DNA from: Gemmatimonadales bacterium
GTDB lineage: Bacteria > Gemmatimonadota > Gemmatimonadetes > Gemmatimonadales > GWC2-71-9
DNA length: 63,422 nt
Assembly: GCA_025927545.1 (NCBI GenBank)
Contig: JAICLE010000008.1
Coordinates: 1-63,422, forward strand
Direction: 5' to 3'
The notes under the pieces were generated by a model that was not told where the DNA came from, searched no databases, and saw nothing but the letters and a program-made list of their open reading frames with translations. Below are positions 16,510 through 61,423 of the stretch, piece by piece (positions within the stretch are counted from its first letter, which is position 1; each line of letters begins with the position of its first letter). A program made the position numbers and the translations under genes.

Positions 16510-17013
16510 ATGAGGCGGTGCCGCCTGCTGGAAAAGACGTGGGTGCTGCTCCCGGCGATGGCCTGCACGCCGCTGGGCCTCTGGATGTACCAGGACCCGG
16601 GGGTGACGGTGTCTCGCGTGCGGCTCGGCAGCGAGCCGACGGACTCCGCGCCCGTCGTGGTGGCGCTCGACGTCCGCAACCCCAACGACTATGGAGTCTC
16701 TACCACCCGGGTCGAGCTTCGGCTGGCACTGGACGATCGGCCCATCGGCCGCCTCGATCGCGCCAGCCATGTGGCACTGCCCCAGGTGGCGACCTCCACC
16801 GTGGCTCTTCCGCTCGTGCCCGACCGGGCCACGAGCGCCGCCCAGCTCCGGGCGTTCGGATCCGGGGTCCATCGCTTCCTGGTCGAAGGCCGGGCCACGT
16901 TCGCTACCCCGATCGGGAGCCGGAAGGTCCGGTTCGCCCAGGAAGGCCAGTTGGCGTTCGGGCCGCCAGCTTTGCCAGCATCCGCTCCAGCCGGTCCAGC
17001 TGCGTCACCGTGA
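16510..17013 (+). CDS. LEA14-like (WHy domain) exported protein
   Basis: A 167-residue protein with an N-terminal hydrophobic segment (WVLLPAMACTPLGLWMY, possibly a weak lipobox at AMAC). A late-embryogenesis-abundant type 2/WHy fold follows: VTVSRVRLGSEPTDSAPVVVALDVRNPNDYGVSTTRVELRLALDDRPIGRLD. The NPNDYGV element and alternating strands are typical. Bacterial relatives are small envelope lipoproteins linked to desiccation or stress, a general family inference. The 3' 110 bases overlap the 3' end of the convergent DnaE2-like gene, so the Ala/Pro-rich C-terminus is read through the complementary strand of that gene. Confidence 0.75.
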   Translation: MRRCRLLEKTWVLLPAMACTPLGLWMYQDPGVTVSRVRLGSEPTDSAPVVVALDVRNPNDYGVSTTRVELRLALDDRPIGRLDRASHVALPQVATSTVALPLVPDRATSAAQLRAFGSGVHRFLVEGRATFATPIGSRKVRFAQEGQLAFGPPALPASAPAGPAASP

Positions 17014-20000
17014 GCGTCACCACCCCGAACTCCTCCTCGACCTTCCCCCGAAAGATGAACGGTCCCTGATCGAACAGCACGTGACCGCGCTCACGATAGA
17101 TGTCCGGGAAGAGCACGACCTCGATGAGGCCGTCGCCGTCGTCGAAGGTGGCGAACTCCATCGGCTCGTCCTTCAGCGTGTGGACCGGCTTGGCGCTGGT
17201 GAGCATCCCGGCCGCCAGCACGTGCTCGCCTACGTGCCGGTGCAGCTCGGTGCTGGGACAGAGCCGGAACCGCCGGAGATCGTCCGCGTAGAGCCGCATC
17301 GGGTGCGCGTCGGTGGTGAAACCGAGGGCGGCGTGCTCCTCCCGGCGGCGCCGCTCGGGGCCGTACTCCTTGAGCACGGGCACGGCGGGCGGAAGGTGGT
17401 CGAACCAGTCGCCCGGGCGGTCGTCGGGTGAGCGGACGCACTCGGCGGTCGAATCCACCAGCCAGAGCATCATCGGCCGGGTCCAGTCGCCCGCGATCGA
17501 GTCCAGCGCGCCGACCTTGATGAGGGCGCGCAGGTCGGCGGGGGAGACGCCGGTGCGGGCGCGGAGGTCGGCGAGGCTGGTGAAGGGGCGGAACGGGGGA
17601 AAGACGGAAGGACGGAGGGACGGAACGTCTCGCGCCTCCCGCAACCGCTCGACCCCCTCCGCCGACAGCTCCTTCACGAACTGCAGCCCGATCCGGAGCT
17701 CCCGCCCGCGGCCGGTCGTGCGGAAGTCGCTCGCGTTCACGTCCGGCGGCAGCACGGTCAACCCCATGCGCATGGCCTCGGCGACGTAGACGAACGGGTG
17801 GTAGAACCCGCCCCCGTTGGCCAGCACCGCGGCCATGAACTCGGCCGGATGGTGCGCGCGCAGGTAGCAGGCGTGCTGCGCCACCTGGATGTACGACGCC
17901 GAGTGCCCCTTGCAGAAGCTGTAGCCGGCGAACGACAGGATCATCGCCCAGACCCGTTTGGCCGTTTCGGCGTCGCGGCCGAGCGCCAGCGCGCCGGTGA
18001 AGAACTCCTCGGCGTAGCCGACAAGCGCCCTGGCGGGCCGCTTCTTGGAGAGCGACTTCCGGAGTCCGTCGGCAGTGGCGAGCGGCATCCCGGCAAAGGC
18101 GGCGCACACGTTGACCACGTCCTCCTGGTAGACCATGACGCCGAACGTCTCCGCCAGCGTGTCGCGCAGCACCGGGTCGAGCGGTTCGTAGGGCGCGCCG
18201 TGCAGCCGCTCGAGATAGAGTCGGATGAAGCGGTTCGAGGCGGGGCGGATGATGCTGGTGTTGAGCACCAGCAGCTCGAACGTATCGGCCCGGCTCTTGG
18301 CGCAGAGCGCCCGCGAGGCGGGCGACTCGGTGTAGAACACGCCCATCGTCCGGCCGGTGCGGAAGAGCTCCTTGGTGGGCTCGTCGTCGCCCGGGTCGGA
18401 GGAGGTGTAGTCGATGTGCCGGCCGGTGTGCGCGTGCACCGCGGCGATGGCGTCACGGATGACGGCCAGCGAGCGGTTGCCAAGCAGGTCGATCTTGATC
18501 AGTCCCGCGTCCTCGGCGCCGTCCTTCTCGAACTGGATGACGGGGACCGTCAGATCCGGGTGCCCGCCGAGCGTCCTGACCGCGCGCTCGGTCGGCACGT
18601 AGTCGGTGAGCGCGGTGGGCACGATGACGGCGCCGCCCGGGTGGAGCGAGAGGTGCCGCGGCACGCCCACCAGTGGCGCCGCCATCCGGGCCAGCTCCTG
18701 CCAGCTCGGTGGCAGGTCGAGCGCCTTGAAGTTGGGGTGGGTGGCGAGCATTTCCTCGAGCGGCTGCTCCTCGTACCACGGGATCCGGCGCGTCACCTCG
18801 CGGATCTCGCCGTTGGGCCGCCCGTGCACCTTGGCCACCTCGCGGAGCGCGCCGCGCAGGCGGAAGCAGTTGTGGTTGGCCACCATCGCGGCCTGCGGAT
18901 GGGGATAGCGCCGGAACACGTAGGCGAGCACGTCGTCGCGCTCGTCCCACGGGAAGTCGAGGTCGATGTCGGGCGGGTCCGTGCGCGCCGGATTGAGGAA
19001 CCGCTCGAACAGGAGCCCCGCGCCGAGCGGCTCGACGTGGGTGATGCCAAGGCAGTAGCTCACGATCGAGTTGGCGACGGAGCCGCGGCCGCAGTGGGTG
19101 GGGCCGTGCTCGACGATGTCGCGCACCACCAGGAAGTAGTCGGCGAACCCCTTCATGCCGATGATCCGGAGCTCGTGCTCGAGCCGGTCGCGCGTCACCG
19201 GCGCGATGGTGCCATAACGCCGCTCGGCGCCGGCATAGGCGAGCGTGCGGAGCTCCTGGGTGGCGTCGTCCGCGTCGGTGAAGCGCGGCGACACCACGCG
19301 GCCCACCGGAATCCGGTACGCGCAGCGCTCGGCGATCTCGGCCGCGGCCCGCAGCGCCTCCGGACAGTCGGGGAACTGGCGCGTGAGGTCGGCGGTGGGC
19401 CGGAGCCAGGCGTCGCGGGGAGCGGGGCAGTCGGGAGGAGGGTGAGATGGTGCCGCCGACCGCCCGACCGCCTGACCGCCCGACAGCGTCCCGTTGAGGT
19501 GGATAGCCCGGAGAAGCCGGTGGCGGCTCCAGTCTTCGGGGTGCGCCATGACGACGGCGTTGGTGACGACGGCCGGGAGGCCCATGCGGCGCGCGGCGAC
19601 GAGCACGGCGTGGCGCTCCTTACCGGGACGGAACTCGGCGTAGAGGTCCCGCGGCCCACTCAGGCGAAGGACCCGCTCCAGGAAGGCGGGGTCCTGTGAG
19701 AGGAGGACGAGGCCGGCGCGATCGGCGGCGAGGGAGGCGGAAAGACGGAAGGGCGGGGCGGAAGGACGGAAAGGCGGCGCAGGTAACCGCGATCGCGGCT
19801 GATTGTCTTTCCGTCCTTCCGACCAGTGAATCTTCGTGATCGCCCGGCAGAGCGCCGCCCACCCGCGCTCGTCCATCGCGAGGGCGACGGTCTCCTCATC
19901 CTCGGTGACGAGGTGCGCGCCCAGGATGGGCCGCACGCCGGCAGCCTCGCAGACGCGCTGGAACTCGACGGCTCCGTAGACGCCATTGGTGTCGGTGCAG

Positions 20001-20107
20001 GCAAGCGCGCCGAACCCCCGCTCGGCTGCCGCGCCGGCGAGGACCTCGGGGCTCGAAACGCCGATGCCGAAGGAGAAGTGGGTGTGGAGGTGCAGGTGGG
20101 TAAACAT
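16904..20107 (-). CDS. dnaE2: C-family DNA polymerase, DnaE2-like (error-prone alpha subunit)
   Basis: A 1067-residue replicative-type polymerase alpha subunit. The PHP domain opens with HLHLHTHFSF (about 4-13); the palm carries PPDIDLDFPW with catalytic aspartates; later come MVYQEDVV, FAGYSFCKGHSASYI and the OB-fold end VEEEFGVVTLTVTQLDRL. The length, the early PHP start and the C-terminus ending just after the OB fold fit the DnaE2/ImuC translesion class rather than the full-length replicative DnaE1, though this cannot be proven here. Three in-frame stretches of short word repeats interrupt otherwise conserved regions at about residues 96-123, 207-218 and 827-837; see the repeat entries. 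An ImuB-like gene lies 4.4 kb away on the same strand. The 3' end overlaps the LEA14-like gene by 110 bases. Confidence 0.85.
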   Translation of the reverse strand: MFTHLHLHTHFSFGIGVSSPEVLAGAAAERGFGALACTDTNGVYGAVEFQRVCEAAGVRPILGAHLVTEDEETVALAMDERGWAALCRAITKIHWSEGRKDNQPRSRLPAPPFRPSAPPFRLSASLAADRAGLVLLSQDPAFLERVLRLSGPRDLYAEFRPGKERHAVLVAARRMGLPAVVTNAVVMAHPEDWSRHRLLRAIHLNGTLSGGQAVGRSAAPSHPPPDCPAPRDAWLRPTADLTRQFPDCPEALRAAAEIAERCAYRIPVGRVVSPRFTDADDATQELRTLAYAGAERRYGTIAPVTRDRLEHELRIIGMKGFADYFLVVRDIVEHGPTHCGRGSVANSIVSYCLGITHVEPLGAGLLFERFLNPARTDPPDIDLDFPWDERDDVLAYVFRRYPHPQAAMVANHNCFRLRGALREVAKVHGRPNGEIREVTRRIPWYEEQPLEEMLATHPNFKALDLPPSWQELARMAAPLVGVPRHLSLHPGGAVIVPTALTDYVPTERAVRTLGGHPDLTVPVIQFEKDGAEDAGLIKIDLLGNRSLAVIRDAIAAVHAHTGRHIDYTSSDPGDDEPTKELFRTGRTMGVFYTESPASRALCAKSRADTFELLVLNTSIIRPASNRFIRLYLERLHGAPYEPLDPVLRDTLAETFGVMVYQEDVVNVCAAFAGMPLATADGLRKSLSKKRPARALVGYAEEFFTGALALGRDAETAKRVWAMILSFAGYSFCKGHSASYIQVAQHACYLRAHHPAEFMAAVLANGGGFYHPFVYVAEAMRMGLTVLPPDVNASDFRTTGRGRELRIGLQFVKELSAEGVERLREARDVPSLRPSVFPPFRPFTSLADLRARTGVSPADLRALIKVGALDSIAGDWTRPMMLWLVDSTAECVRSPDDRPGDWFDHLPPAVPVLKEYGPERRRREEHAALGFTTDAHPMRLYADDLRRFRLCPSTELHRHVGEHVLAAGMLTSAKPVHTLKDEPMEFATFDDGDGLIEVVLFPDIYRERGHVLFDQGPFIFRGKVEEEFGVVTLTVTQLDRLERMLAKLAARTPTGLPGRTGPSGSRSG
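17598..17629. repeat. Octamer word repeat inside the dnaE2-like gene (copy 3)
   Basis: Four consecutive 8-bp words on the plus strand: GGAAAGAC, GGAAGGAC, GGAGGGAC, GGAACGTC. They encode an Arg/Pro/Phe-rich insert (SLRPSVFPPFRPF) at about residues 827-837 of the polymerase. The period of eight does not match the codon period, so the repeat is a DNA-level feature kept in frame by its surroundings. The same words occur at 19739-19820. Confidence 0.8.
19454..19489. repeat. Octamer word repeat inside the dnaE2-like gene (copy 2)
   Basis: Words GACCGCCC (19458), GACCGCCT (19466), GACCGCCC (19474) and GACAGCGT (19482) on the plus strand. A purine-rich partial inverted partner (GGGGCAGTCGGGAGG) lies about 20 bases to the left. 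The stretch encodes an insert of small and Pro residues in the polymerase at about residues 207-218. The word is the reverse complement of the GGCGGTC word at 46844-46867. Confidence 0.75.
19739..19820. repeat. Octamer word repeat with inverted arm inside the dnaE2-like gene (copy 1)
   Basis: The left arm has words GGAAAGAC, GGAAGGGC, GGAAGGAC and GGAAAGGC (19739-19775). The right arm, GTCTTTCCGTCCTTCC at 19805-19820, is the inverted form of the same words. The element is translated in frame as a Pro/Phe/Arg-rich insert (RLPAPPFRPSAPPFRLS) at about residues 97-123, between the PHP motifs TKIHWSE and SLAADRAG. Confidence 0.8.
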
Positions 20108-38063: not shown

Positions 38064-38920
38064 TGCTGCTGCTGCCGTTCGCACCGCTGCTGGACGAGCG
38101 ATCGCGACCTACGGTGCCTTTCGAGTGGGCCTGGTCCCTGCACCCCAGCGTCCTCCTGGGCACCGGAATCCTCGGTGCCCTCTATTTTTACGGGATCGGG
38201 CCGTGGCGCCGGCGGCGCGGACTTCCCCCGGTTCCCGCCCGGAAGGTGGCGTCGTTCTGCGGGGCGATGCTCGTGCTGCTGGGCTCGCTCAACGGGCCGG
38301 TGCACGATCTCAGCGACTACTATCTCTTCACCGCCCACATGGTGCAGCACCTGCTGCTCACCCTGGTCTTCCCGCCGCTGCTTCTTGCCGGGACACCCGG
38401 GTGGCTGCTCCAGCCGCTGCTCCGCCCGCCCGCTGTGCGGTGGGTGGCCCGGGTGCTGACCCAGCCGTTGATGGCTGCCGTGCTGTTCAGCACCGCCATC
38501 ATCGTGTGGCATCTGCCGCCGTTCTACGAATTGATGATGCGCGACCACGACGTCCACATCGTGACGCATCTGATGTTCATGGCCACCGCCACCCTGCTCT
38601 GGTGGCCGGTCATGAGCCCGGTGCCCGAGCTGCCACGGCTCGGCTACGGTCTGGGTATGCTGTATCTCTTTCTGGTGGGGATCCCGATGCAGATCGTAGC
38701 GGCGATGATCTCGCTGGCCGGCGGGGTGCTCTACCCTTGGTACAGCGCGGCCCCCCGCACATGGGGCCTCTCCCCACTCGACGACCAGCAGCTTGGCGGC
38801 CTGATCATGTGGGTGCCCGCGAATCTCTACATGTTCCTGGCGATCGGCGTGCTGTTCTTCGCCTGGGCGAAGGAGAGCGAGCGGGAGGACGACGGTGAGC
38901 GGCAGGGGGTGAGAGGGTGA
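38063..38920 (+). CDS. ctaG: CtaG-type cytochrome c oxidase assembly protein
   Basis: A 285-residue inner-membrane protein of the caa3-type CtaG family (CtaG_Cox11-unrelated, seven-helix type). Typical segments are HPSVLLGTGILGALYFYGIGP, SDYYLFTAHMVQHLLLTLVFPPLLLAGTPGWLL, IIVWHLPPFYELMMRDHDVHIVTHLMFMATATLLWWPVM and QQLGGLIMWVPANLYMFLAIG. The conserved His-rich helices suggest copper handling during CuA/CuB assembly. It starts one base inside the coxD stop and closes the oxidase operon. Its last codons run into the GGTGAGA word repeats, so the C-terminus (DDGERQGVRG) is shaped by the repeat element. Confidence 0.9.
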   Translation: MLLLPFAPLLDERSRPTVPFEWAWSLHPSVLLGTGILGALYFYGIGPWRRRRGLPPVPARKVASFCGAMLVLLGSLNGPVHDLSDYYLFTAHMVQHLLLTLVFPPLLLAGTPGWLLQPLLRPPAVRWVARVLTQPLMAAVLFSTAIIVWHLPPFYELMMRDHDVHIVTHLMFMATATLLWWPVMSPVPELPRLGYGLGMLYLFLVGIPMQIVAAMISLAGGVLYPWYSAAPRTWGLSPLDDQQLGGLIMWVPANLYMFLAIGVLFFAWAKESEREDDGERQGVRG

Positions 38921-39274
38921 GAGGTAAGAGGTAAGAGGTAAGAGGTGAGAGCAGGTGGGCTGCGCTTTGTGAGCCATGCGTGCGGTGGGGAGATTGGGAG
39001 GGGCTGGCCACGGCGTGTAGGATGCGACCACATGCAGGATCACAAGTCGATCGTCGCCTGGCAGGAAGCCCATGAGGGGCCCGAGCCGCTCTCCGGACCT
39101 GCCGGCCATCGAGGAAGGAGTGCTCCCGGATCCGGAAGGTCAGGCCATCCTCGCGAGATGTCGCCGAACGCAGTCGCTCTTACTCGGACTCGTCCGGGGC
39201 TACCGACCGGCCACGTCCCGCTGATCGCCCCCTCTTACCTCTTACCTCTTACCTGTTACCTCCTGCCGCTCACC
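38908..39274. repeat. Inverted heptamer-word element flanking a decayed gene
   Basis: The left arm has seven-base words in tandem: GGTGAGA, one spacer base, GGTGAGA, then GGTAAGA three times, then GGTGAGA (38908-38950). The right arm has TCTTACC three times, then TGTTACC, TCCTGCC and GCTCACC (39233-39274), the inverted form of the same words. The interior of about 280 bases contains a remnant of a four-helix-bundle gene. The outer ends reach into ctaG on the left and the DUF423 stop codon on the right. The element fills the otherwise gene-free 38921-39255. Confidence 0.8.
39032..39190 (+). pseudogene. Decayed four-helix-bundle (S23/IVP-like) gene remnant
   Basis: The frame begins MQDHKSIVAWQEAHE, which matches the start of the four-helix-bundle family related to 23S rRNA intervening-sequence proteins (usual pattern W-Q-x-A-H near residue 10-14). 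Immediately afterwards the reading becomes low-complexity, and the typical middle motif (SVPSNIAEG) and length of about 120 residues are missing. Fragments such as SLLLGLVRGY in another frame hint at frameshifted decay. It sits inside the GGTAAGA-word inverted element, so it may be its former cargo. No Shine-Dalgarno sequence is obvious. Confidence 0.5.
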
Positions 39275-42854: not shown

Positions 42855-42864
42855 GGGGGCTTTC

Positions 42865-42931
42865 GTGAGTCGTGGGTCGTGGGTCGTGAGTTCGACGATC
42901 GTCGGCCGCGGCGCCCGCGCCGCCGACTCAC
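42865..42931. repeat. Inverted heptamer-word element (GTGRGTC)
   Basis: The left arm has four tandem seven-base words: GTGAGTC, GTGGGTC, GTGGGTC, GTGAGTT (42865-42892). The right arm has the inverted word GACTCAC at 42925-42931. The interior contains a GC-rich palindromic stretch (GGCCGCGGCGCCCGCGCCGCC). It occupies the gap between the permease stop and the fabI start. Confidence 0.75.
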
Positions 42932-46166: not shown

Positions 46167-46872
46167 GGTCTCAATGATATCCCGGTGGGGAGGGCTCGGT
46201 CTGCTGCTGATCGCCGCCGCGGCATGCGACCGGAAGCCTGCGCCTCCGGCCGCGGCGCCGCCGCCCGCGGGATCAGCGGCCCCCGCGGCCGACTCGCGCG
46301 GCAGGGTGGTCTTTCTCGGCACGAGCCTGACGGCCGGCTTGGGCCTCGATCCGGCCGAGGCATATCCCGCGCTGGTGCAGCGGAAGATCGACTCCGCCGG
46401 GTTGCCCTTCGCCGTCGTCAATGCCGGCGTGAGCGGCGAGACCTCGGCGGGTGCACGGCGGCGCATTGACTGGCTCATGCGTGAGCCGGCGGCCGTGCTG
46501 GTGATCGAGACCGGCGCGAACGACGCGCTTCGCGGGCTCGACGTGGACTCGCTGGTGGCCAACATCCAGGCCATCATCGACCGCGCGCGGCAACAGGTTC
46601 CGCCACCGGAAATCGTGCTGGTGGGGATGCGGTCGCCGCCGAATCTCGGAGCCGCCTACGTCCGACGGTTCGACGCGGCCTACGCCACTCTGGCCCGGCG
46701 GAACCGGGTAGCACTGGTGCCATTCCTGCTCGAGGGGGTGGCGGGGGTCGACTCGCTCAACCAGGCCGACGCCATTCACCCGACGGCGGCAGGACAGCGG
46801 AAGCTGGCGGAGACGGTGTGGCCGGCGGTCGAGGGGGCGGCAAGGCGGGCAGGCGGTCGGGCGGTCAGGTAG
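46165..46872 (+). CDS. SGNH/GDSL esterase, TesA-like lipoprotein
   Basis: A 235-residue exported esterase. A lipoprotein signal (LGLLLIAAAAC, Cys at about 21) leads to an Ala/Pro linker and an SGNH hydrolase domain: block I LGTSLTAGLGL (Ser nucleophile; Thr replaces the usual Asp), block II NAGVSGETSAG, block III ETGANDALRG and block V DAIHPTAAG. TesA-like enzymes hydrolyse acyl-CoA or lysophospholipids in the periplasm. The order tesA-like / divergent ybbA-like / ybbP-like equals that of E. coli. ATG 46174 is an alternative start. The last codons (RRAGGRAVR) are encoded by the GGCGGTC word repeats. Confidence 0.87.
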   Translation: MVSMISRWGGLGLLLIAAAACDRKPAPPAAAPPPAGSAAPAADSRGRVVFLGTSLTAGLGLDPAEAYPALVQRKIDSAGLPFAVVNAGVSGETSAGARRRIDWLMREPAAVLVIETGANDALRGLDVDSLVANIQAIIDRARQQVPPPEIVLVGMRSPPNLGAAYVRRFDAAYATLARRNRVALVPFLLEGVAGVDSLNQADAIHPTAAGQRKLAETVWPAVEGAARRAGGRAVR

Positions 46873-60055: not shown

Positions 60056-61423
60056 CTAGTTGAGCCGGGTCAGCTCCACCCGCCGGTTCTGCGCCCGGCC
60101 CGCGGCCGTCCGGTTCGATGCGATCGGCTTGTTCGGCCCGAAGCCGGCCGCGGTAAGCCGGTCGGCCGCCACGCCCTTGGAAATGAGATACTCGCGGACC
60201 GCGTTGGCCCGTGCCGCCGAGAGCCGCTTGTTCACCGCGGCGGACCCGGTGTTGTCGGTGTGGCCGCCGACCTGCACCTTGATGGAGTCGTTGGCCACGA
60301 GCGACTCCGCCACCCCGTCCAGGATCGTCTGCGACTCCGGCGTGAGGTCGGCCTTGCCGGTCTCGAAGTTCACGCCTTCGAGGATCAGCGTCTTCTTCGA
60401 TTGCTCGAACAGCACCTGGCAGCCTTCCTGGTCGACCTTGACGCCGGCCGGCGTGCTCGGGCACCGATCCTTGTCGTCGTTGACCCCATCGCCGTCCGCA
60501 TCCTTGGGCAGCGGGCACCCCTTGGCATCCACCTGCTCGCCCGCGGGGGTGTCCTTGCACTGGTCCACATCATCGTTGACGCCGTCGCCGTCGGCGTCCT
60601 TCGGCAGCGAGCAGCCCTTGGCATCGACCTTGTCTCCGGCCGGGGTGTCGGGGCACTGGTCGGCGGTGTCCACCACGCCGTCGCCGTCGGCATCCTTCGG
60701 CAGCGAGCAGCCGCTGGCGTCCACCTTGTCGCCGGCCGGGGTGGCGTTGCACTTATCCACGTCGTCGAGGACGCCATCGCCGTCGCTGTCCTTGATGGTG
60801 CAGCCCTTCGCGTCCACCTTGGCGCCGGCGGGCGTGTCCTTGCACTCGTCCGCCTTGTCCGGCACGCCGTCGCCGTCCCGGTCGCGGACCTTGCCCCCGC
60901 GGTTGCCCAGGAAGAAGCTGAGCCCCGGCTGAATGCCCCAGTTGAGGTTGTCCGAGGCGCCATTGTCGGGCGAGGGGATGTAGTCGAGGTAGGTGTCGAT
61001 GCGGATCGAGGTGACATCGCCCAGGCCGAGCCGGAGGCCGACGCTGCCGGTGACGCCGTTGTCGCTCAGGTGGTAGTCGCGGCGGTAGAGCGTGTGGACG
61101 AAGCCCGCGGCAAAGATGAAACCCGTCTGCTCGCCCGCCGGCACGTTCAGCGCCAGCTTTCCCCGCAGCGGCACGTAGGAAACATCGGACTGCAACCGCC
61201 CCTTGGCCGGCACCCACGCGCCCTCCGCCTCCACCGCCAGATGGTCGGTGAGGAAGAGCCCGAGTCGTCCGCCCGGGCCGGCCTTCGCCTGCTGCATCTG
61301 CAGCGAGCGGTCGAAGTAGCTGACGTTGGGGAATACTCCAACTTCGAACGTGCCGGCCTGCTGGGCGGCGCTCTGCGAAGCGACGGCGATGGTCGCCAGA
61401 AGGAACAGGGCAAGGCTGCGCAT
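60056..61423 (-). CDS. OmpA-family outer-membrane protein with thrombospondin-3 repeats
   Basis: A 455-residue outer-membrane protein. The signal peptide (SLALFLLATIAVASQSAA) leads to an eight-strand barrel-like region (about 25-175). Five calcium-binding type-3 repeats of about 30 residues follow (pattern DxDGDGVxDxxDxCxxTPAGxxVDxxGC, about 180-335). The C-terminal OmpA domain is LEGVNFETGKADLTPES ... GGHTDNTGS ... AQNRRVELTRLN. It links outer membrane and peptidoglycan like OprF. GGAGAAGAAGTG precedes the ATG at 61423. The 293 bases upstream, shared with the divergent small gene, show no gene. Confidence 0.92.
   Translation of the reverse strand: MRSLALFLLATIAVASQSAAQQAGTFEVGVFPNVSYFDRSLQMQQAKAGPGGRLGLFLTDHLAVEAEGAWVPAKGRLQSDVSYVPLRGKLALNVPAGEQTGFIFAAGFVHTLYRRDYHLSDNGVTGSVGLRLGLGDVTSIRIDTYLDYIPSPDNGASDNLNWGIQPGLSFFLGNRGGKVRDRDGDGVPDKADECKDTPAGAKVDAKGCTIKDSDGDGVLDDVDKCNATPAGDKVDASGCSLPKDADGDGVVDTADQCPDTPAGDKVDAKGCSLPKDADGDGVNDDVDQCKDTPAGEQVDAKGCPLPKDADGDGVNDDKDRCPSTPAGVKVDQEGCQVLFEQSKKTLILEGVNFETGKADLTPESQTILDGVAESLVANDSIKVQVGGHTDNTGSAAVNKRLSAARANAVREYLISKGVAADRLTAAGFGPNKPIASNRTAAGRAQNRRVELTRLN

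What the first reader, a model, noticed from the sequence alone, without database searches (positions are those of the whole stretch)
17598..19820. Three in-frame repeat insertions inside the DnaE2-like polymerase
Word-repeat stretches at 19739-19820, 19454-19489 and 17598-17629 are translated as Pro/Arg/Phe- or small-residue-rich inserts, while the flanking polymerase motifs read normally. The period of eight is not a codon multiple, yet the frame is kept across each insert. A mutagenic polymerase that itself carries length-variable repeats could be phase-variable.
Basis: partly seen in the sequence, partly recalled or inferred. Interest (0 to 1): 0.58.

Follow-up and report, generated by a model that had tools for sequence, protein, structure and literature searches.

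The report
Species-private repeats invade polymerase loops
Short eight-letter DNA words scattered through this soil bacterium's genome have inserted themselves, without breaking the reading frame, into floppy loops of a DNA polymerase, and related species carry their own different words in the very same loops.

Summary
The three inserts are real: word-repeat stretches at aa 96-123, 207-218 and 827-837 of a 1067-aa DnaE-family polymerase. They are not local microsatellites. Their words (GACGGAAR, GGCGGTCR) are dispersed through the genome (124 exact double-word matches for the first), mostly between genes, often as inverted pairs. In 21 Gemmatimonadota orthologues, 22 of 23 such arrays fall in four sites (6.1% of bases), the four internal low-confidence loops of a good AlphaFold model. 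Species mostly carry their own word there. An alanyl-tRNA synthetase loop behaves alike (5 of 17 genomes); the replicative DnaE hardly does (2 arrays in 15 genes). So permissive loops repeatedly accept in-frame copies of species-private repeats, as with Rickettsia palindromic elements, but built from short words with mostly unrelated spacers. Unexpected: in 46 of 46 inverted pairs (about 15 words, 11 genomes) the G-rich arm comes first, so both G-rich 3' ends point inwards. No RAYT-type transposase or reverse transcriptase was found; Ku is present. Phase variation is untested: frame is kept in 21 of 22 genes; one has a frameshift at site 3. The polymerase fails the NCBIfam error-prone (DnaE2) cut-off.

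The parts
16904..20107 (-). DnaE/Pol III alpha-family DNA polymerase (PHP, NTPase, finger, HHH_6 domains), 1067 aa, host gene of the inserts
   Evidence: ORF; Pfam; NCBIfam, over the polc superfamily cut-off only; Foldseek to solved Pol III alpha, best 7pu7_A E 6e-60
19738..19824 (.). Site 1: inverted-pair element of word GACGGAAR (G-rich arm, 33-nt spacer with no other copy found in the genome, C-rich arm), aa 96-123, loop in the PHP domain
   Evidence: inverted repeats; DNA fold z -4.86; 44 places in own genome match, nearly all through one arm; pLDDT < 50 at 99-116
19452..19489 (.). Site 2: array of word GGCGGTCR (CCGACCGC on + strand), aa 207-218, loop before the palm/NTPase domain
   Evidence: TRF, period scan; same word in the alanyl-tRNA synthetase of this genome; pLDDT < 50 at 212-223
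17590..17629 (.). Site 3: array of word GACGGAAR, aa 827-837, loop in front of the HHH_6 region's C-terminal half
   Evidence: TRF, period scan; 55 matches for this region in own genome at E <= 1e-3; pLDDT < 50 at 833-836
17390..17458 (-). Site 4: linker aa 884-906, no array here but arrays in MAG-65, RA47, G006 and Ww334a orthologues
   Evidence: pLDDT < 50 at 891-905

Best explanation
The three inserts are in-frame copies of the genome's own dispersed word-repeat elements: tandem arrays of a species-private G-rich 7-9-mer, often two arrays in inverted orientation around a short, usually unrelated spacer, landing in surface loops that tolerate extra residues. Such elements enter DNA at many places. 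Inside genes, only copies that keep the frame, contain no stop and fall in disordered loops survive selection. That is why different species carry different words at the same four loops of this polymerase and at one loop of alanyl-tRNA synthetase. Shown: dispersal, near-privacy of the words tested, recurrence at fixed loops, frame retention, loop disorder in the model, rarity in the replicative paralogue. Inferred: that loop tolerance and purifying selection, not targeting, explain the sites; that the polymerase still works; and the physical insertion process.
For: Word A: 124 exact double-word matches in G000, 38 in G005, 18 in G029, at most 6 in each of the other 58 genomes. The G007 word: 48 in G007, 29 in G003, at most 4 elsewhere. 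The G034 word: 91 in G034, at most 2 elsewhere. The G008/G009 word: 50 and 65, at most 4 elsewhere. In 21 orthologues 22 of 23 period 6-9 runs lie in four sites making up 6.1% of bases; codon-shuffle mean 0.0. Control: replicative DnaE, 2 runs in 15 genes, both in G008. The alanyl-tRNA synthetase loop carries arrays in 5 of 17 genomes examined (G000, G007, G003, G006, G042). All four internal pLDDT < 50 segments are the four sites; model mean 87.6. 18 of 19 in-gene word variants are stop-free on both strands, against 5 of 11 seen only outside genes or at their edges. MAG-65 has three different words at its four sites, and of two gene copies in one genome (Ww334a/b) only one has arrays, so insertions are repeated.
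Against: No insertion event was seen directly and no empty site was compared between close strains. Loop tolerance is inferred: among 364 predicted genes in the sample only two carry word arrays, so many other loops have none and targeting of these genes is not excluded. Some words are one or two substitutions apart, so an old insertion whose word drifts in concert with the genome could also put different words at one site. Broken copies and fragments (G002, second copy of G006, short pieces of G005, G007, G008, G010) were left out of the 21-gene count; G002 has a frameshift at site 3. 12 of 17 alanyl-tRNA synthetases have no array at the loop, and G015, G019 and G042 have runs elsewhere in that gene.
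Confidence: 0.82

Rival explanations
1. Phase-variable contingency locus: gain or loss of an 8-bp unit switches a mutator polymerase on and off.
For: The unit is not a multiple of 3; one orthologue (G002) is out of frame exactly at site 3; length differs widely between species.
Against: The repeats are genome-wide and mostly intergenic. Arrays in this gene are short and imperfect. Frame is kept in 21 of 22 genes. An aminoacyl-tRNA synthetase carries the same kind of insert.
Confidence: 0.06
2. Concerted drift: the insertions at these loops are ancestral, and their word changes together with all other copies in the genome (homogenisation), so a different word at one site does not mean a new insertion.
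For: Species words can be ordered in chains of one or two substitutions (GGGGAAAC, GGGGAAGC, GGGGCAGC; GGCGGAAC, GGCGGTAC), seen. G007 and G003 share both the word and the alanyl-tRNA synthetase site.
Against: G008 and G009 share a word but carry it at different polymerase sites (1 and 2). Several orthologues have no insert and MAG-65 has three words in one gene.
Confidence: 0.2
3. The elements are bidirectional transcription terminators or mRNA-stabilising hairpins (REP-like) kept for function between genes; the in-gene copies are accidents.
For: 22 word-blind runs lie in 38,287 intergenic bases against 11 in 348,528 coding bases. Many start within about 5-60 bases of a gene end. Site 1 folds strongly.
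Against: It explains neither the private words nor the fixed order of G-rich and C-rich arms. Arrays without a nearby partner are common (word A: 55 clusters, 18 pairs within 600 bp).
Confidence: 0.25
4. They are MITE- or REPIN-type elements moved by a transposase.
For: Inverted arms, high copy number, intergenic preference; eight of 20 word-A pairs in G000 wrap a related palindromic core.
Against: 26 of 35 spacers have no relative among the others. No fixed sequence borders the arrays inside or outside. No Y1 transposase (PF01797) in the own genome (genome 91% complete).
Confidence: 0.2

Closest known systems
Rickettsia palindromic elements (RPE)
   Same: Dispersed palindromic repeats that insert in frame into unrelated protein-coding genes and are translated (passage read in PMC10969869)
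   Different: RPE families are about 150 bp with a conserved peptide; here only 7-9-bp words are shared, the spacer is usually unrelated, words differ between species, and the same loops are hit repeatedly
REP / REPIN with RAYT transposase
   Same: Inverted pairs of short repeats, intergenic (listing and abstract start of PMC3116915; details recalled)
   Different: Arms are tandem arrays of a word rather than one REP; no Y1 transposase found in this genome
Heptamer direct repeats (STRR of cyanobacteria, recalled; TAACTGA of Beggiatoaceae, PMC4679880)
   Same: Dispersed tandem 7-mers, mainly between genes; some inside ORFs (passages read)
   Different: TAACTGA has 169 direct sets and one indirect repeat in one genome and the same word in distant taxa; here inverted pairs are common and words are near-private
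Repeats reported in Gemmatimonadota chromosomes (90- and 150-bp classes, PMC11237797)
   Same: Same phylum, short dispersed repeats, density differs strongly between strains (passages read)
   Different: The passages read do not describe word arrays, polarity or in-gene copies; the method used 32-bp seeds
DRT10, a bacterial reverse transcriptase making tandem-repeat DNA in a telomerase-like way (PMC12632851)
   Same: A bacterial source of short tandem repeats (abstract start seen)
   Different: No RVT_1 domain found in this genome; chromosomal repeats are not mentioned in what I saw

Membership tests
Rickettsia-type palindromic element (in-frame) | Insertion in frame into host ORFs | tested here: met
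   21 of 22 DnaE-like genes open across the sites; alanyl-tRNA synthetase too
Rickettsia-type palindromic element (in-frame) | Copies share one element sequence and peptide | tested here: not met
   26 of 35 spacers unrelated; site-1 spacer has no other copy
MITE | Conserved terminal inverted repeats with target-site duplication | tested here: inconclusive
   Arms are word arrays with no fixed border; target duplication not tested, no empty-site pair available
REPIN/RAYT | Cognate Y1 (RAYT) transposase in the genome | tested here: not met
   PF01797: 0 matches in G000, 5 of 14 control genomes ring. The genome is 91% complete, so this is not final
REPIN/RAYT | Two short repeats in inverted orientation with fixed order | tested here: met
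   46 of 46 inverted pairs in G-rich, C-rich order
Phase-variation contingency locus | Tandem unit whose length is not a multiple of three inside an ORF | tested here: met
   Units of 8 bp at sites 2 and 3
Phase-variation contingency locus | Copy-number switching within one species | not testable with these tools
   One genome per species held; the single frameshift in G002 is unverified
DnaE2 / ImuC error-prone polymerase | Curated error-prone model over its cut-off | tested here: not met
   NF004225: 550.1 bits, cut-off 939
DnaE2 / ImuC error-prone polymerase | Neighbouring imuA/imuB (Y-family) genes | tested here: inconclusive
   Four flanking window proteins show DUF72, GSDH, ADH or nothing; in MAG-65 (L091) a Y-family IMS gene and a methyladenine glycosylase lie upstream
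Telomerase-like repeat addition | Reverse transcriptase in the genome | tested here: not met
   PF00078: 0 matches in G000; diverged RTs could be missed and the genome is 91% complete

The most novel reading that the evidence does not exclude
The polarity rule points to an unknown process that extends 3' DNA ends with a species-specific G-rich word. In every inverted pair the G-rich strand runs 5' to 3' towards the spacer from both sides (46 of 46), as if both 3' ends of a chromosome break had received telomere-like repeats and were then joined (Ku is encoded). The polymerase and synthetase inserts would then be scars of repaired breaks that happened to keep the frame. Arms are not mirror copies of each other (13 of 29 variant positions agree, 0.45 against 0.54 with shuffled partners), as expected if each end is extended separately.
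Probability: 0.13. Interest if true: 0.92.

Novelty: new variant of a known kind. Interest (0 to 1): 0.62.

Why it matters
It is a natural insertion-tolerance experiment: different species have put different DNA words into the same four loops of a polymerase and one loop of an essential synthetase, so the permissive positions can be read off directly. The strict order of G-rich and C-rich arms across about 15 words is a constraint that any model of how such repeats arise must meet, and it makes a break-end model testable in a cultured Gemmatimonadota strain. It also warns that contigs of metagenome assemblies in this group often end at these repeats.

Tried and rejected
Looked for a Y1/RAYT transposase and a reverse transcriptase in the own genome: none. 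Tested whether the second arm is a mirror copy of the first (fold-back copying): unit variants are not mirrored. Tested whether spacers define a mobile family: 9 of 35 have a relative, all in G000; eight hold the nested TCATCC-type palindrome and one is a weak relative. Looked for a conserved border sequence: none beyond the word. Looked for inverted array pairs in 722 kb around distant homologues of other phyla: 32 runs, 0 inverted pairs. Strain variation could not be searched: the collections hold one genome per species. Literature searches for such repeats in Gemmatimonadetes/Gemmatimonadota listed nothing that describes them by title or abstract start; I read passages of one paper on repeats in the phylum. 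No claim of absence from print is made beyond those searches.

Sampling limits: of the 20 stretches, seven were placed on known word-A matches (on C60, C93 twice, C100, C118, C130, C177), so array density per kb there is inflated; gene context was not known when they were chosen. The polarity count used loci fetched around word matches; for G034, G007 and G008 they were taken in the order listed, not by strand; two loci that duplicate others (L008, L060) were dropped. Genes in the sample come from a simple codon-usage gene finder of my own, not from a published one. The numbers 'about 15 words' and '11 genomes' are my own tally of the pairs printed.

Full report
Observation. The gene at 16904-20107(-) encodes a 1067-aa DnaE-family polymerase. 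Stretches 2 and 3 are period-8 arrays; stretch 1 is an inverted pair around a 33-nt spacer. The window has 6 period 7-9 arrays against 0-1 in ten shuffles.

The words belong to the whole genome. The region of insert 3 matches 55 places in the own genome at E <= 1e-3, its own included; insert 1 matches 44, its own included, nearly all the others through one arm only, and its spacer shows no copy elsewhere. In 386 kb of the own genome (window plus 20 stretches) I found four word families: GACGGAAR and GGCGGTCR (8-mers), GGTRAGA and RGTCGTS (7-mers). Word-blind counting gives 22 runs in 38,287 intergenic bases and 11 inside genes in 348,528 coding bases; of the 11, four are arrays of these words, all in two genes, this polymerase and an alanyl-tRNA synthetase.

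The words are largely private to species. In 61 genomes of the own genus, family and order, the double word of insert 3 has 124 matches in the own genome, 38 in G005, 18 in G029 and at most 6 in each of the other 58. The word found in the G007 orthologue has 48 matches in G007 and 29 in G003, none in the own genome. That of G034 has 91 in G034 and at most 2 elsewhere. That of G008 and G009 has 50 and 65 there and at most 4 elsewhere. Controls with the reversed pattern gave 0 for the first word, 0-1 for the second and third, and up to 4 per genome for the very G-rich fourth. A separate palindrome, TCATCCYGAGCGNAGCGARGGA, is shared more widely: 9 of the 10 genomes of the genus (own included) have it, up to 235 matches in G003.

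Relatives carry their own words at the same places. I aligned 21 Gemmatimonadota DnaE-like genes and 9 more distant ones. Period 6-9 runs in the 21 genes number 23, of which 22 lie in four sites (aa 94-125, 207-223, 827-840, 884-906 of this protein; 3,576 of 58,599 bases); codon-shuffled genes gave a mean of 0.0. Examples: GGCGGAAC at site 1 of G007, GGGGCGGC at site 1 of G008, GGGGCAGC at site 2 and a GAGCGCAGCGAGG-type palindrome at site 3 of G009, GTCGAAG at site 2 and GGGAACG at site 3 of G034, and arrays at all four sites of MAG-65 with three different words. Orthologues without any array exist (for example G017, G025, G011, G019, G027). Left out of the 21: G002 (frameshift at site 3), the second copy in G006 (in-frame stop), and fragments from G005, G007, G008 and G010.

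Loops. An AlphaFold model made from this alignment has mean pLDDT 87.6; its segments below 50 are 99-116, 212-223, 833-836, 891-905 and the C-terminal tail 1054-1067. The four internal ones are the four sites. Foldseek places the model with solved Pol III alpha chains (best 7pu7_A, E 6e-60).

Controls. The replicative DnaE of 15 of the same genomes has 2 runs in 52,764 bases, both in G008 and one possibly before the start codon. Alanyl-tRNA synthetase has a loop after the CGPCTEIYVDLE motif that carries arrays in 5 of 17 genomes examined (G000, G007, G003, G006, G042); 12 have none there, and G015, G019 and G042 have runs at other places in that gene. So the polymerase is not unique, and a loop of an essential enzyme is hit too. 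In-gene words are stop-free on both strands in 18 of 19 variants, against 5 of 11 of those seen only outside genes or at their edges, which fits selection after insertion.

Polarity. Scanning the Gemmatimonadota loci held, without naming any word, I found 48 neighbouring array pairs within 300 bp with shared words: 46 inverted, 2 direct. All 46 inverted pairs have the arm with more G than C first, over about 15 words and 11 genomes by my tally of the printed pairs. For four named words in four genomes the count of inverted neighbours is 33 of 33 in this order, with one further same-strand pair (overlapping data). If each word had a random order, 15 of 15 would have a chance of about 3e-5. Unit variants are not mirrored between arms, most spacers are unrelated (26 of 35), and no sequence beyond the word marks the borders. 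In 722 kb around homologues in other phyla there were 32 runs and no inverted pair.

Mechanism. Best supported is repeated insertion of word elements followed by selection for frame and loop position. How the elements are made is open. A RAYT-type transposase and a reverse transcriptase were not found; Ku is encoded. The inward G-rich 3' ends would follow if broken 3' ends were extended with the word and then joined; this is inference, and I give it 0.13.

Identity of the polymerase. It is over the cut-off only for the general polc superfamily, and below cut-off for both the replicative and the error-prone models. In MAG-65 a Y-family polymerase and a methyladenine glycosylase lie upstream, and in RA47 a methyladenine glycosylase, which suggests a repair role, but the name DnaE2 is not secured. 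In the window the neighbours tested are DUF72, a glucose/sorbosone dehydrogenase, an unknown protein and an alcohol dehydrogenase.

Known relatives. Rickettsia palindromic elements are the nearest precedent for in-frame palindromic repeats (passage in PMC10969869); they differ in sharing a long common sequence. Heptamer repeats in Beggiatoaceae (passages in PMC4679880) are direct rather than inverted and not private. REPINs (PMC3116915, listing and abstract start only) are inverted pairs linked to RAYT. Repeats in Gemmatimonadota are described as 90- and 150-bp classes without the features seen here (passages in PMC11237797). DRT10 (PMC12632851, abstract start only) shows that bacteria can make tandem-repeat DNA.

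Verdict. Real, in-frame, loop-located inserts of genome-wide, species-private repeats; phase variation untested and less likely; a strict arm order that is unexplained.

Noticed in passing
window 38912-39269: Inverted pair of GGTRAGA heptamer arrays (arms 44 nt, 82% complementary) around about 255 bp near gene ends; same G-rich-first order.
   Followed up: partly
window 42860-42894 and 46835-46869: Further word arrays: a GTCGTGGG-type heptamer array and an AGGCGGTC octamer array near gene ends.
   Followed up: partly
L049:1802-4537: Alanyl-tRNA synthetase of the own genome carries a complete inverted GGCGGTCR pair in frame in a loop.
   Followed up: yes
G000, G002, G003, G005, G009 and other genomes of the genus: A palindrome TCATCCYGAGCGNAGCGARGGA occurs in up to 235 matches per genome and is nested inside word-array pairs in the own genome; it or a close variant also sits at polymerase site 3 in G003, G008 and G009.
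   Followed up: partly
contig ends of G000, G007, G008, G009: Many contigs stop near these arrays with the G-rich strand running towards the end, probably because assembly breaks in the inverted pair.
   Followed up: no
G002:C64 (L018/L097), polymerase site 3: Reading frame changes exactly within the site-3 insert; real out-of-frame allele or assembly error.
   Followed up: partly
window 60435-60878: Four to five 96-bp tandem repeats (a multiple of three), possibly a coding repeat.
   Followed up: no
L084 and L085 (isolate Ww334), G006: Two copies of the DnaE-like gene in one genome; in Ww334 only one copy carries word arrays.
   Followed up: partly
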